Source: Saccharicrinis aurantiacus (GTDB lineage: Bacteria > Bacteroidota > Bacteroidia > Bacteroidales > Marinilabiliaceae). From it: a DNA stretch of 37,818 nucleotides. The position numbers were made by a program, and so were the translations under genes. Shown here in pieces: positions 32,850-37,818 of the stretch. Within the stretch, counting starts at the first letter, position 1. Every line of letters begins with the position of its first letter. The stretch is from assembly GCF_001660705.2 (NCBI RefSeq), contig NZ_LYBV02000024.1, positions 1-37,818 of the forward strand, written 5' to 3'. The notes below the pieces were generated by a model, which was not told where the DNA came from, searched no databases, and saw nothing but the letters and a program-made list of their open reading frames with translations.

Positions 32850-33270
32850 TGCCGATTGTATTATGTTATATCAAAGGGCTCGAATTTATCTTATTATTTC
32901 TATTATGAACATTATAAATATTTCGAAACATCCATAAATGAATTTGAATCGACTTTAAACTGAATCTAAGTTGATAAAGCTTATTTCTGATCGCTGTTCT
33001 TTTTGCAAAACTTAATTTATGCTGTTGATTTATTTAAGAAGTAGCTTAAAGTTATACCGAAAATCTACACGCAACATCTTAATTCCATTAACTACTACTA
33101 ATTATTCCGCACTTATGGCTATGCAATAAAAGCCTGAGATTTTACACTGATAATCAATCCATAAATCTCGAAATAACTCTAAAACTAAAAACTACTTCGA
33201 AGCTCAATTTTGATTGATCAAATTGATATCAAAAAAATCTTAGTATTTTCGTGCCAAAGAATGATAAACA
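32850..33270. other. Intergenic region between divergent BamA-like and SUI1 genes
   Basis: This 421-base AT-rich gap shows no supported gene. A weak hairpin, GAGATTT (33136-33142) with AAATCTC (33163-33169), is the only clear secondary-structure signal. No promoter with both boxes was found for either flanking gene. Confidence 0.4.
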
Positions 33271-34106: not shown

Positions 34107-34514
34107 ACAGTATAGTTTTTACGTGTAAAGACTAAAATCCTGAATGTTTTAAGCTCAGCTAAAGAACAATTTAATTACAAAACCGACATTGTATTGTGCG
34201 GCCTACCATGCTGGTAAGCTCATAATTTCTGTAATACATTATGTTATTGCATAAAATATGTATGCATCATGTTATACCAAAAACATCATCAAATAATTGA
34301 TATAAATTATTTCTATAAAGCTTCTACTTCTTTATAAAATATCAATGTAGCTATGGCTATATCTCTATTTTATTAATTGTAGAACCTTTAAATAATTCAA
34401 TTTCTTATCAATCATTCAATAATGCATTTGGTATTATAGCGCTAGCTCTAACCGATTTTAGCACTATAGCATACCGTATTTTATAGCACTAACAACAAAA
34501 AGTTATAAGAACAA
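34107..34514. promoter_or_regulatory. Receptor upstream region with TATAGC repeats
   Basis: This 408-base gap has no supported gene. TATAGC occurs at 34435, 34465 and 34482, extended to TATAGCGCTA (34435-34444) and TATAGCACTA (34482-34491), with TAGCACTA also at 34459-34466. A hairpin TATAAAG/CTTTATA is at 34314-34336. TGCATTTG near 34424 is one base off the TAnnTTTG -7 box. Any regulator is unknown. Confidence 0.4.
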
Positions 34515-36884
34515 ATGAATAATTTACTAAGAAATCTCTCTATTTTTGCGCTATTGTTAACAGCAACTACACTGTTTGCTGCGGATAAACTACCTCCTGT
34601 TAAAGGAATGGTATCAACCAACGGCGAACCAATTCCGTTTGCCACAATAGCCATAGCCTCAACAACCCTGGGAACCGCTTCAGATGACAAAGGTGTATAT
34701 ACTTTTAGTAGTTTACCCGAAGGCCATTACACAATTATAGCGCAAGCAGTTGGTTACAAAGCCAAAGAAGTTGAGATTGACTATGAAATTGGAAAAAACT
34801 TGGTGATTAACTTCGACTTAGCTGAAGATGTACTAGGCCTAGAGCAAGTGGTTGTTACAGCCGATAAACATCAAAAGAAAAGAATTAACGCTTCGATGGT
34901 AGTAAATACCATGACTCCTAAAACTTTTAGCCAAACACAATCGGTTACTTTAAGTGAGGGATTAAGCTTTACACCAGGTATCAGAACCGAAAACAATTGC
35001 CAAAACTGTGGTGCCAATAGTGTTAGAATGAATGGTATGGAAGGTTCATACTCTCAGGTATTGATTAACGGAAAACAAATTTTCTCTGGCTTAGCCAGCG
35101 TTTATGGTTTAGAAATGATACCGGCTAATATGATTGAGCAGGTTGAGGTTGTAAAAGGTGGCGGTTCTGCACTTTACGGAAGTAATGCAATTGCCGGAAC
35201 TATTAACTTAATAACAAAAGAGCCTACAACAAATACTTTTGAAGCAGGTATCAACAACGGTATTATAGGTGTTGGTAAAGATGGTGCTGCTAACGATTTA
35301 AACATCAACTTAAATACCTCAATTGTTACTGAAGACAAAAACACAGGTATGAGTTTATATGGATCGCACCGAAACAGAGAAGGTTTTGATTATAATGGTG
35401 ATGGCTTTACTGAGCTTGCTGAATTGAACAATGTTACTTTAGGAACCAGTGTTTATCACCGAATGGGATATAGAGATAAAATTACTTTTGATTATTTCCA
35501 TATTCAAGAAGACAGAAGAGGTGGCGATCAATTAGACTTACCAAAACATGAGGCTGAAATTGCAGAAGCCGTAGAACACAAAATAAACACCGGAGCCATA
35601 AACTACACACGTTTTGTGGGTGAAAATAATGGTCAATTATCTGTATATGCATCGGCACAGCACATTGATAGAGGTTCGTATTATGGTGCAGAGAAGGATC
35701 CTAGTGGTTACGGGCACACTACTGATTTATCGTATGCAATAGGTACACAATACAAGGCCGACTACGGAAAATCGAACTTAGTAGCAGGTATTGAGAATAA
35801 TGGTAGTAAGCTTAATGATAAAAAATTGGCTTATACTTACTTTGATGAAGAAAGTGGTACAATGCTTACCGAGGATACACGCCAAGTATCTAAACAAAAC
35901 AGTAACATTTGGGGTGCATTCGGACAATATGAATATGCTTTTAATAAGTTAACTCTATCGGGAGGTTTAAGAGTAGATTATTACGATATAAACAATGAAG
36001 TGGATTCAAAAAACGATTTAGATAACGTTGTAGTTAGTCCGCGCTTAAATGCATTGTATTCTCCTAGTGATAAAATTAGAATTAGAGGTAGTTACTCGCA
36101 AGGATATAGAGCACCTCAAATTTTTGACGAGGATTTACACATTGAATCTTCTGCAGCCCGTAAAGTGGTACATGTAAATGGCGATAACCTAGAGCAAGAA
36201 ACTAGTCACAGCATGATGGCCTCGTTCGATTACCACTCACAAATTGGTAGTGGGGAGTTTGAATTTTTAGTAGAAGGCTTTTATACATATTTAGAAAATG
36301 CATTTGTATTAGATCATGGTGCACCAGATGAAGATGGCGTTGCCTTGTATACTCGTTTTAATTCAGATGTTCCTGCTCGTGTTAAAGGTATCAATTTTGA
36401 GTTACGCTATGCTCCTTCTATTAAATTCGATTTTAACGGTGGCTATACCTTCCAATCAAGTCAGTTTGATGAGGAACAAGAGTATAATGACGCAGGAACA
36501 CTTACTACAAAAGAGTTTTTAAGAACTCCGAATAACTACGGATTCTTTACGCTTAACTATAAACCAACACGCAAGCTTACTTTATCTGCTAACGCCACCC
36601 ATACAGGATCTATGAATATTGCCTATTTTGGGCCAGAATTAGAAAACCCTGAAGAAGGTGAGTTAAGAACTACCGATCAGTTTTTTGATTTAGGTTTAAA
36701 AGCAGAATATACCCTTAAATCGAAAAGTGGTGTTGATGTGGCATTCTCAGCAGGTATTAAAAACATATTTAACAGTTATCAAAGTGACTTAGATACCGGT
36801 GTTAATAGAGACCCAGCTTATATGTATGGTCCGCAAATGCCAAGAACGGTTTATTTTGGTATTAAAATAGGAAACCTATTATAA
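34515..36884 (+). CDS. TonB-dependent outer-membrane receptor (CirA-like)
   Basis: The 789-residue protein has a signal peptide (LRNLSIFALLLTATTLFA) and a carboxypeptidase-regulatory-like domain (about 27-105, VKGMVSTNGEPIPFATIAIA). The plug follows (about 120-225, with VLINGKQIFSGLASVYGLEM, GGGSALYGSNAIAGTINLIT), then a 22-strand-type barrel to the final VYFGIKIGNLL. It imports a scarce ligand using TonB energy. The plug carries a CxxC pair (C162 and C165, in NNCQNCGANSVRMNG) seen in one subgroup of Bacteroidota receptors. The His-rich protein upstream favours a metal or metal-complex ligand; no siderophore or SusD partner is nearby. A strong terminator follows. Confidence 0.92.
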   Translation: MNNLLRNLSIFALLLTATTLFAADKLPPVKGMVSTNGEPIPFATIAIASTTLGTASDDKGVYTFSSLPEGHYTIIAQAVGYKAKEVEIDYEIGKNLVINFDLAEDVLGLEQVVVTADKHQKKRINASMVVNTMTPKTFSQTQSVTLSEGLSFTPGIRTENNCQNCGANSVRMNGMEGSYSQVLINGKQIFSGLASVYGLEMIPANMIEQVEVVKGGGSALYGSNAIAGTINLITKEPTTNTFEAGINNGIIGVGKDGAANDLNINLNTSIVTEDKNTGMSLYGSHRNREGFDYNGDGFTELAELNNVTLGTSVYHRMGYRDKITFDYFHIQEDRRGGDQLDLPKHEAEIAEAVEHKINTGAINYTRFVGENNGQLSVYASAQHIDRGSYYGAEKDPSGYGHTTDLSYAIGTQYKADYGKSNLVAGIENNGSKLNDKKLAYTYFDEESGTMLTEDTRQVSKQNSNIWGAFGQYEYAFNKLTLSGGLRVDYYDINNEVDSKNDLDNVVVSPRLNALYSPSDKIRIRGSYSQGYRAPQIFDEDLHIESSAARKVVHVNGDNLEQETSHSMMASFDYHSQIGSGEFEFLVEGFYTYLENAFVLDHGAPDEDGVALYTRFNSDVPARVKGINFELRYAPSIKFDFNGGYTFQSSQFDEEQEYNDAGTLTTKEFLRTPNNYGFFTLNYKPTRKLTLSANATHTGSMNIAYFGPELENPEEGELRTTDQFFDLGLKAEYTLKSKSGVDVAFSAGIKNIFNSYQSDLDTGVNRDPAYMYGPQMPRTVYFGIKIGNLL

Positions 36885-36941
36885 AACAAGCAATTACCTT
36901 CAGCTAAGCTGAGTGATAATATAACAATTAGTATTTAGATT

Positions 36942-36979
36942 AAAATCCCGAATGTAAGCCACATTCGGGATTTTTTTTT
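36942..36979 (+). terminator. Intrinsic terminator after the TonB-dependent receptor
   Basis: AAAATCCCGAATGT (36942-36955) pairs with ACATTCGGGATTTT (36961-36974) around AAGCC, followed by a T-run to 36979. It lies 57 bases after the stop codon. Confidence 0.93.
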
Positions 36980-37243
36980 GCTTTAACCCTTGACATTGTA
37001 CATAATTGTTATATTTTTACATACTCATTCTTAATACTTTATCCAAAACCCTAATGAAATGAACACCCATACTACTATCCATATCACTAAGCCATACTAC
37101 ATTTCTGCATCACATAATACTTCCAAAAAGGCAACACTTAGATTAGTGCCATTAGGTATCAATACCTAAATCTTTGTTGATACGAAAAAATACTCTTGGT
37201 AAACACTCAAAAGTTATTGCAATTGGTTTTATACAGTTTTAGC
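36980..37243. other. Intergenic region before the tandem array
   Basis: No gene is visible in this stretch. It contains the perfect inverted repeat TTAGGTAT-CA-ATACCTAA (37152-37169), whose 2-base centre suits an operator more than an RNA hairpin. Just before it is an imperfect stem GGCAACACT/AGTGCC (near 37133-37150). No promoter with both boxes was found. Confidence 0.45.
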
Positions 37244-37455
37244 GTGGCAAAGTGCCAAAGCTCATTTAAAACTTAAACAAGCAATGGCAAAGTGCCAAAA
37301 CTCGTTTAAAACTTAAACAAGCAATGGCAAAGTGCCAAAGCTCATTTAAAACTTAAACAGACAATGGCAAAGTGCCAAAGCTCATTTAAAACTTAAACAG
37401 GCAATGGCAAAGTGCCAAAGCTCGTTTAAAACTTAAGCAAGCAATGGCAAGATGA
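37244..37455 (+). repeat. 40-bp tandem repeat array, five copies plus a stub
   Basis: Copies begin at 37244, 37284, 37324, 37364 and 37404, each exactly 40 bases, with a truncated sixth at 37444. Each unit contains the dyad TGGCA-AAG-TGCCA, then AA, then a second dyad with arms GCTCGTTTAA and TTAAACAAGC (one mismatch) around AAC, then AA. Each unit also reads as ATG (GTG in the first copy) plus nine codons and TAA, encoding MAKCQSSFKT (N for the first S in copy 2), with 7 bases to the next start. It ends 56 bases before the DUF6261-like gene. It is not a CRISPR array, as there are no unique spacers. Confidence 0.9.
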
Positions 37456-37510
37456 ACCACAACAATAAATAAAAATCGAATAACTTAAAATAATAACCTT
37501 TAAAACAGAA

Positions 37511-37818
37511 ATGATGATTAGCAAATTAAGAAGTACTAGTAAAGTAACTGAGGTTGATGCTGCTTGCAAACTTATTATTGAAGCTTATAACAAAAAGGAT
37601 TTAAGTGCCGACACTTATATTACCTCTGTTTTCGATCAATTAAAAACCCTGAGTAGTGCTTTATCAACTGCCATTAGGAAAGATGCTGTTGAGTCGGAAT
37701 TAGACACTCTGGATTCGATGCGCGACGATTTGATAAAGTCTGCTCACTATCTCCTCCTTGGTTATATACATAGCCCTAACGAAATATACAATACTGCTGC
37801 AACAGCCGTTAAGAAAGT
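37511..37818 (+). CDS. DUF6261-like protein, 3' partial
   Basis: The ATG at 37511 opens a frame that runs off the end of the window; 102 codons are visible. The product is helical and soluble (MMISKLRSTSKVTEVDAACK ... LDSMRDDLIKSAHYLLLGYI). The pattern of an acidic helix, then DxxRD, a hydrophobic helix and GYIHSPN, followed by an Ala-rich helix, recalls the DUF6261 family of Bacteroidota, whose function is not known. It has no signal peptide or membrane segment. The preceding 40-bp tandem array is its only visible upstream control region. Family assignment is by eye and moderate. Confidence 0.6.
   Translation, partial: MMISKLRSTSKVTEVDAACKLIIEAYNKKDLSADTYITSVFDQLKTLSSALSTAIRKDAVESELDTLDSMRDDLIKSAHYLLLGYIHSPNEIYNTAATAVKK

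What the first reader, a model, noticed from the sequence alone, without database searches (positions are those of the whole stretch)
37244..37455. 40-bp tandem array whose unit is two abutting dyads
Five exact-length 40-base units each decompose completely as dyad I (TGGCA-AAG-TGCCA, 13 bases), AA, dyad II (arms GCTCGTTTAA/TTAAACAAGC around AAC, 23 bases, one mismatch), AA. Ordinary replication-slippage repeats do not need such internal symmetry. Regular 40-bp spacing (about four helix turns) suits cooperative protein binding or a chain of RNA hairpins ahead of the DUF6261-like gene. The function is unknown.
Basis: partly seen in the sequence, partly recalled or inferred. Interest (0 to 1): 0.85.

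Follow-up and report, generated by a model that had tools for sequence, protein, structure and literature searches.

The report
Private palindromic arrays beside DUF6261 genes
The repeat is one of many tandem arrays, each with its own sequence but nearly the same 40-43-letter spacing and often the same mirror symmetry, that sit beside members of an uncharacterised bacterial gene family, which suggests that each gene keeps its own DNA landing strip.

Summary
The array is real (window 37245-37450, 40 bp x 5.2). Dyad I is perfect in all 5 units; dyad II carries 2-4 mismatches, not one. It is not a one-off. The gene 3' of it belongs to DUF6261, judged by a 57% identical paralogue. Of 122 DUF6261 loci with non-identical proteins, 87 have an array of period 40-43 bp upstream, 9 downstream, none both by this criterion, and 26 none. 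Controls: 0 of 36 flanks of other genes and 0 of 130 DUF6261 coding sequences. Unit sequence is private and turns over fast, but geometry is kept. In 65 arrays with proteins under 60% identical, the second two-fold axis lies exactly half a period from the first (z = 7.5). So arrays are rows of ~20.5-bp half-sites in alternating orientation, two helical turns apart. RNA signatures are absent. Best reading: a cis-acting DNA site array serving the adjacent DUF6261 protein. Binding is inferred, not shown; the acidic, all-helical protein speaks against it. Type III toxin-antitoxin and REP-RAYT membership tests fail. Arrays without an intact gene also occur in the genome.

The parts
37245..37450 (.). 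Tandem array, 40-bp unit x 5.2, made of alternating inverted ~20-bp half-sites
37245..37284 (.). Unit 1: dyad I 37245-37257 perfect; dyad II 37260-37282 with 2 mismatches
37285..37324 (.). Unit 2: dyad I perfect; dyad II 2 mismatches
37325..37364 (.). Unit 3: dyad I perfect; dyad II 4 mismatches
37365..37404 (.). Unit 4: dyad I perfect; dyad II 3 mismatches
37405..37444 (.). Unit 5: dyad I perfect; dyad II 2 mismatches
37197..37244 (+). 5' flank shared with the array without a DUF6261 gene at G000:C26:45532 (function unknown)
37451..37473 (+). Short 3' flank partly shared with that array
37511..37818 (+). DUF6261-family gene, N-terminal part only; cut by the contig end. The 102 aa seen are 57% identical to the own-genome paralogue that matches PF19775 at 1.1e-15; the fragment itself has no Pfam match at E 0.001 (the match in the paralogue starts at residue 62)

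Best explanation
The array is a cis-acting DNA site cluster that serves the adjacent DUF6261 gene. Shown: most surveyed DUF6261 genes have one such array, mostly upstream; the period is 40-43 bp; two-fold axes recur every half period; sequences are private. Inferred: the DUF6261 protein itself, as a dimer or a chain of dimers, binds its own array cooperatively, one protomer per ~20.5-bp half-site in alternating orientation. All sites face the same side of the helix, and the resulting complex near the promoter controls the gene's own expression, or marks that stretch of chromosome. Arrays without a gene elsewhere in the genome would be extra sites or remnants.
For: Recurrence and specificity: with periods 30-60 allowed, upstream score >=20 in 66 of 104 loci, all at period 40-43, against 9 of 104 downstream with mixed periods; 87 up, 9 down, 0 both, 26 none of 122 loci with non-identical proteins; controls 0 of 36 and 0 of 130. 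Named genomes: 21 up, 3 down, 3 none of 27 (10 of the 27 repeat anonymous loci); 5 of 8 loci from other families score >=16 upstream at period 41-42; a Parabacteroides distasonis plasmid copy has a 42-bp array. DNA geometry: 41 and 42 bp equally common (39 and 39 of 82), i.e. about 4 turns; second axis exactly at half period (z = 7.5, 65 arrays). Not RNA-like: GT 163 vs AC 149, sense vs antisense folding P = 0.64. Array mostly outside the leader: promoter-like hits with the -33 box 61-80 nt before ATG 41, block-shuffled mean 16.9, maximum 31 of 60; array end to ATG median 158 nt in 84 loci; two downstream arrays (L043, L130) lie beyond an intrinsic terminator.
Against: No binding data. The protein is acidic (median pI 5.5; 9 of 99 above 8), all-helical and without a recognisable DNA-binding domain or fold match. 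Unit sequence changes even between proteins 60-80% identical (recognisable in 4 of 12 pairs), faster than usual for a sequence-specific site. 26 of 122 loci have no detectable array. Only 31 of 67 arrays are individually significant for full symmetry. Promoter-like hits are enriched in one 20-nt bin only, not in total (131 vs 128.6 shuffled); on the reverse strand the total is 114, with 28 in the -60 bin; a strict promoter pattern found nothing; the consensus is recalled. Three downstream arrays (L149, L152, L153) start 4-5 nt after the stop codon, so they may well be transcribed.
Confidence: 0.43

Rival explanations
1. The array is a mobile or self-copying palindromic element (BIME/REPIN-like) that spreads with or alongside DUF6261, which may help it to move; arrays without a gene are its non-autonomous copies.
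For: Copies without an intact gene but with shared flanks; no array within 700 bp 3' of the orthologous neighbour gene in 8 of 8 sister species for the window-type copy; array and gene are absent after the two closest orthologues of the upstream TonB gene; alternating orientation is the BIME geometry (PMC2817692, passages); Y1 transposase-like ORFs lie within the fetched flanks of 4 of 132 loci.
Against: No transposase domain found in DUF6261; no clear common end sequence or target duplication in the boundaries inspected; one copy (L188) is array plus promoter region plus 14 codons, i.e. a decayed locus.
Confidence: 0.23
2. The array is transcribed and acts as tandem structured RNA bound by DUF6261 (type III toxin-antitoxin-like).
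For: Same layout at first sight (private tandem repeats just upstream of a small gene); the sense strand folds better than shuffles (median z -3.6 over 67 arrays); both-sides-changed-still-paired cells 24 vs 8.8 expected in 26 non-independent array pairs; three downstream arrays begin 4-5 nt after the stop codon.
Against: Terminator-like structure between array and gene in 1 of 84 loci (4 of 84 on the antisense strand), while the same scan finds one within 90 nt after the stop in 47 of 132; no strand asymmetry; 9 arrays 3' of the gene; no related solved structure.
Confidence: 0.14
3. The array binds a general host factor (gyrase, HU/IHF-like or a global regulator) and DUF6261 is only the regulated gene.
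For: DUF6261 is acidic and lacks a recognisable DNA-binding fold; unit sequences are free, as if only bendability or symmetry counted.
Against: A general factor would favour a shared motif and arrays beside other genes; in sampled own-genome DNA the 30-60-bp arrays seen are of this class only (26 of 488 overlapping tiles, all period 40-42; the tiles are the window plus stretches chosen around these loci); 0 of 36 flanks of two other gene families.
Confidence: 0.13
4. Neutral replication slippage plus template-switch repair of quasi-palindromes.
For: Such repair can create compensatory changes without selection (recalled).
Against: Does not explain the 40-43 bp limit across unrelated sequences or the tie to one gene family.
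Confidence: 0.05

Closest known systems
F-plasmid centromere parS_F/sopC with SopB (ParB_F)
   Same: Twelve 43-bp tandem repeats containing ten 16-bp inverted repeats, bound by one protein (PMC6238139, passages; that its gene lies alongside is recalled)
   Different: No ParA/ParB relative recognised; many genomic copies, up to 20 matches per genome; private unit sequence for each gene; two alternating axes per unit
REP/BIME elements with RAYT transposases; REPINs
   Same: Palindromes in alternating orientation, dispersed copies, compensatory changes (PMC2817692 and PMC3116915, passages)
   Different: Partner is not a Y1 transposase; array is single-sided; period nearly fixed at 40-43 bp; unit sequence differs for nearly every gene
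Type III toxin-antitoxin (ToxIN, CptIN, TenpIN)
   Same: Private tandem repeats directly upstream of a small protein gene
   Different: No terminator between array and gene in 83 of 84 loci; no RNA strand signature; array may be 3' of the gene; no ToxN relative found
CRISPR arrays
   Same: Regular repeats; some DUF6261 genes lie inside cas operons
   Different: No spacers: units abut head to tail

Membership tests
DUF6261 (PF19775) for the adjacent gene | Profile match over the curated cut-off | tested here: inconclusive
   Window fragment (102 aa) has no match, but its 57% identical own-genome paralogue matches at 1.1e-15, 58.3 bits vs cut-off 27
Type III toxin-antitoxin | Rho-independent terminator between repeat array and toxin gene (PMC5086642, passages) | tested here: not met
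   1 of 84 loci sense, 4 of 84 antisense
Type III toxin-antitoxin | Toxin of the ToxN endoribonuclease family | tested here: not met
   No PDB relative by profile (best E 0.87); AF2 model all-helical, no PDB fold match at E <= 0.001
Type III toxin-antitoxin | Array transcribed as antitoxin RNA | tested here: inconclusive
   Indirect only: no strand asymmetry; no expression data
REP/BIME-RAYT | Y1 tyrosine transposase gene flanked by two inverted REPs | tested here: not met
   Scanned DUF6261 proteins match no transposase family (2 full proteins); 0 of 122 loci have 40-43-bp arrays on both sides
REP/BIME-RAYT | Palindromic units in alternating orientation | tested here: met
sopC-like centromere (ParABS) | Tandem repeats with inverted-repeat sites next to the gene of the binding protein | tested here: inconclusive
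   Geometry met; binding not testable here
sopC-like centromere (ParABS) | ParA ATPase and ParB partner genes | tested here: inconclusive
   No neighbour family in more than 5 of 132 loci with 1.5-2.5 kb flanks; recurring families only partly annotated
CRISPR | Repeats separated by unique spacers | tested here: not met
   Units abut at 40-bp steps
Known Rfam RNA | Covariance-model match over gathering score | tested here: not met
   None over the gathering score in window 36880-37818, the only stretch searched

The most novel reading that the evidence does not exclude
A geometry-coded addressing system: DUF6261 paralogues read spacing and two-fold symmetry (possibly extruded hairpins) rather than a fixed sequence. 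Each polymerises on its own array of alternating half-sites two helical turns apart, so that ten or more mutually orthogonal protein-array pairs coexist and diversify in one genome.
Probability: 0.25. Interest if true: 0.88.

Novelty: categorically new. Interest (0 to 1): 0.72.

Why it matters
A protein family of unknown function, with up to 20 matches per genome in the window's family, is tied to DNA arrays whose spacing and symmetry are conserved while their sequence is not. If the protein reads its array, this is a large natural set of orthogonal protein-DNA pairs and a way to ask how a recognition system can change sequence quickly without losing function. It also gives DUF6261 a testable role. 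The occurrence of DUF6261 between cas9 and cas1 in five CRISPR-Cas loci, four of them with a short array, makes it relevant beyond one bacterial family.

Tried and rejected
RNA leader or antitoxin reading: tested by mismatch types, strand-specific folding, terminator scan and promoter position; disfavoured, not excluded. Strict promoter pattern: no hits in any of the three zones. Rfam: nothing over the gathering score. Fold and sequence search of the protein: no informative relative. Viral contigs: 53 pattern stretches, none encoding a relative; phages: no match with one query. PHROGs: only weak matches. Heritability of the period: seen only at 50% protein identity or more; below that 41 and 42 mix as by chance, so the idea that each distant protein clade dictates its own period is not supported. 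A neighbouring DRT9 reverse transcriptase as the source of one array (L189): dropped as a single coincidence. Reading L056/L079 as a compensatory pair was by eye; the script did not count it.

Literature: searches for DUF6261 (one paper, unrelated by title and abstract), and for word sets on Bacteroidetes tandem palindromes, intergenic tandem repeats, type II-C cas9 with DUF/RAYT, and 42-bp arrays in Bacteroidales showed no description in the listings; the library holds open-licence papers only.

Full report
What is in the window. TRF reports one strong tandem array at 37245-37450, period 40, 5.2 copies. Its self-match score is 146 against a maximum of 18 in 300 shuffles. Dyad I (TGGCA-AAG-TGCCA) is perfect in 5 of 5 units. 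The two dyads obey one reflection: their centres are 20 bp apart in a 40-bp period, and the unit read as a circle pairs with itself at 26 of 40 positions (14 of 5000 shuffles reach this). The gene after it starts at 37511 and runs off the contig; the window is the whole contig. The visible 102 aa are 57% identical to another protein of the same genome, which matches Pfam DUF6261 (PF19775) at 1.1e-15.

The array class. The own genome holds 15 PF19775 matches besides the window's truncated gene. With the thresholds (score >= 16, period 40-43, 800 bp), 9 of these 15 have an adjacent array: L032, L037, L038, L040, L041, L042, L044 and L046 upstream, L043 downstream; L034, L036, L039, L045, L047 and L048 have none. 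The window gene makes 10 of 16. These arrays differ in sequence. I fetched further loci from the window's family, where 37 of 71 genomes carry the domain: 28 came with that search and 60 by place, the first 60 matches, by E-value, of a capped list that had no locus yet. With periods 30-60 allowed, an upstream score of 20 or more was found in 66 of 104 loci with enough upstream sequence, with periods 40 (3), 41 (32), 42 (30) and 43 (1). Downstream it was 9 of 104, with periods 32, 35, 41 (3), 42 (3) and 52. 84 upstream and 17 downstream regions beat all 20 of their own shuffles.

Wider sample. A scan of named genomes gave 27 loci (Marinilabiliaceae, Kordia, Aquimarina, Flammeovirgaceae and others): 21 with an upstream array, 3 downstream, 3 none. 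Ten of the 27 have proteins identical to loci of the anonymous survey. An even sample of 296 genomes of the phylum had the domain in 6, the own genome among them; 5 of the 8 loci from the others score 16 or more upstream at period 41-42. A Parabacteroides distasonis plasmid copy has a 42-bp array of 3.5 units upstream, though its full two-fold symmetry is not significant (516 of 2000 shuffles reach it). Joint tally over L032-L163: 97 up only, 9 down only, 0 both, 26 none of 132; without the ten duplicates 87, 9, 0 and 26 of 122. 'Both' is judged at period 40-43; five loci have an upstream array and some other 30-60-bp repeat downstream (L053, L078 with its duplicate L142, L104, L156). Controls: 0 of 36 flanks of two other gene families in sister genomes and 0 of 130 DUF6261 coding sequences.

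Geometry without sequence. Unit sequences are recognisably alike mostly between close proteins: 6 of 6 pairs at 80% identity or more, 4 of 12 at 60-80%, 1 of 12 at 50-60%, 5 of 31 at 40-50%, 2 of 51 at 35-40%, and 8 of 1968 below 35%. Yet 31 of 67 arrays, the window's included, are individually self-complementary at P < 0.05; 36 are not. In 65 arrays left from 83 after dropping relatives at 60% protein identity or more, local two-fold pairing measured away from the best dyad peaks only at exactly half a period (z = 7.5; other offsets within 8 bp have |z| of 1.7 or less). The simplest description is a row of ~20.5-bp half-sites in alternating orientation, i.e. two helical turns per half-site and four per unit; an exact half-period follows from that arrangement. 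Periods 41 and 42 are equally common (39 and 39 of 82), and the period is inherited only among proteins at least 50% identical.

DNA or RNA. Mismatches inside dyads are G-T 163 and A-C 149 over 62 dyads, so there is no wobble bias. Both strands fold equally well (67 arrays, P = 0.64); in the window the antisense strand folds better (-0.43 vs -0.31 per nt). Promoter-like boxes (recalled Bacteroidota consensus, loose match) are enriched in one place only: with the -33 box 61-80 nt before ATG there are 41 hits against 16.9 in block shuffles (maximum 31 of 60), while the total is 131 against 128.6 (104 loci). On the reverse strand the same bin has 9, its neighbour 28, and the total is 114. A strict pattern found none. 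So the promoter position is suggestive, not settled. Array ends lie a median of 158 nt before ATG (84 loci). A terminator-like hairpin between array and gene occurs in 1 of 84 loci, while the same scan finds one within 90 nt after the stop codon in 47 of 132. Of the nine downstream arrays, L043 and L130 start after an intrinsic terminator by the scan, but L149, L152 and L153 start 4-5 nt after the stop codon and may be transcribed. Changes on both sides that keep a pair number 24 against 8.8 expected, in 26 array pairs that share members and so are not independent; template-switch repair could also cause this.

Arrays without a gene, and turnover. The own genome has arrays alike to gene-adjacent ones but without an intact gene: at C26:45532 (window type), C40:86873, C30:85091, C26:2402 and C26:64831 inside contigs, and C11:24, C50:27237 and C32:158938 at contig ends where one side is not seen; one more turned up at C26:7530, neighbours not inspected. 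The C32 copy carries the array, the region before the gene and the first 14 codons of its DUF6261 gene and then breaks off, so at least one is a decayed locus. Three (C11, C50, C40) share their own 3' flank. No array lies within 700 bp 3' of the orthologous neighbour gene of the C26:45532 array in 8 of 8 sister species, and two of these show the purM-like gene next to it. The window array and gene are absent after the two closest orthologues (70-71% identical) of the upstream TonB gene.

The protein. 99 full-length proteins fall into 80 clusters at 60% identity; a D..RD motif is kept in 91-96% of the 80 representatives. An AlphaFold2 model of one of them is all-helical (pLDDT 84, pTM 0.50) without a PDB match at E of 0.001 or better. 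Proteins are acidic (median pI 5.5), which counts against simple DNA binding.

Judgement. The association, the narrow period and the alternating two-fold geometry are shown. That the array is a DNA element is supported by the geometry and the lack of RNA signs, less firmly by promoter position. That DUF6261 binds it is inferred from adjacency, the one-array-per-gene pattern and the geometry, by analogy with sopC/SopB (PMC6238139, passages). I put this at 0.43. It is not a type III toxin-antitoxin or a REP-RAYT unit by the tests made. I call it categorically new because it fails the defining tests of the systems it resembles, or these could not be tested, and no description was found in the searches listed; if the binding reading is right, it would still work like a known kind of site array.

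Noticed in passing
L155, L156, L157, L158, L161: DUF6261 lies between cas9 and cas1-cas2 of CRISPR-Cas loci in five named genomes; four of the five (not L157) have a short 41-42-bp array between cas9 and DUF6261 (PADLOC was run on proteins of L156, L157 and L161 only).
   Followed up: partly
L155 3330-3926, L156 3388-3978, L158 2212-2874, and an ORF about 1.1 kb 3' of DUF6261 in L090: Y1 (IS200-like/RAYT-like) transposase ORFs 3' of DUF6261; Pfam match for L156, none for L158, the others by similarity.
   Followed up: partly
L189 2875-4374: DRT9 defence reverse transcriptase (PADLOC 2.4e-209) directly 5' of an array without a DUF6261 gene.
   Followed up: no
window 33035-33198 and 34276-34436: Dispersed repeats (~165 and ~155 bp) shared at 70-91% with several other places in the same genome.
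   Followed up: no
L032 2524-3465: 222-bp tandem repeat (4.3 copies, running to the end of the stretch) 3' of a DUF6261 gene; sequence between the gene and it recurs near three arrays without a gene.
   Followed up: no
L078 and L142, about 130 nt after the DUF6261 stop: Run of 7-base CTCAACC-like repeats beside an Anaerophaga DUF6261 gene.
   Followed up: no
window 36942-36974: Terminator-like inverted repeat (14-base perfect stem, then T run) after the TonB receptor gene.
   Followed up: no
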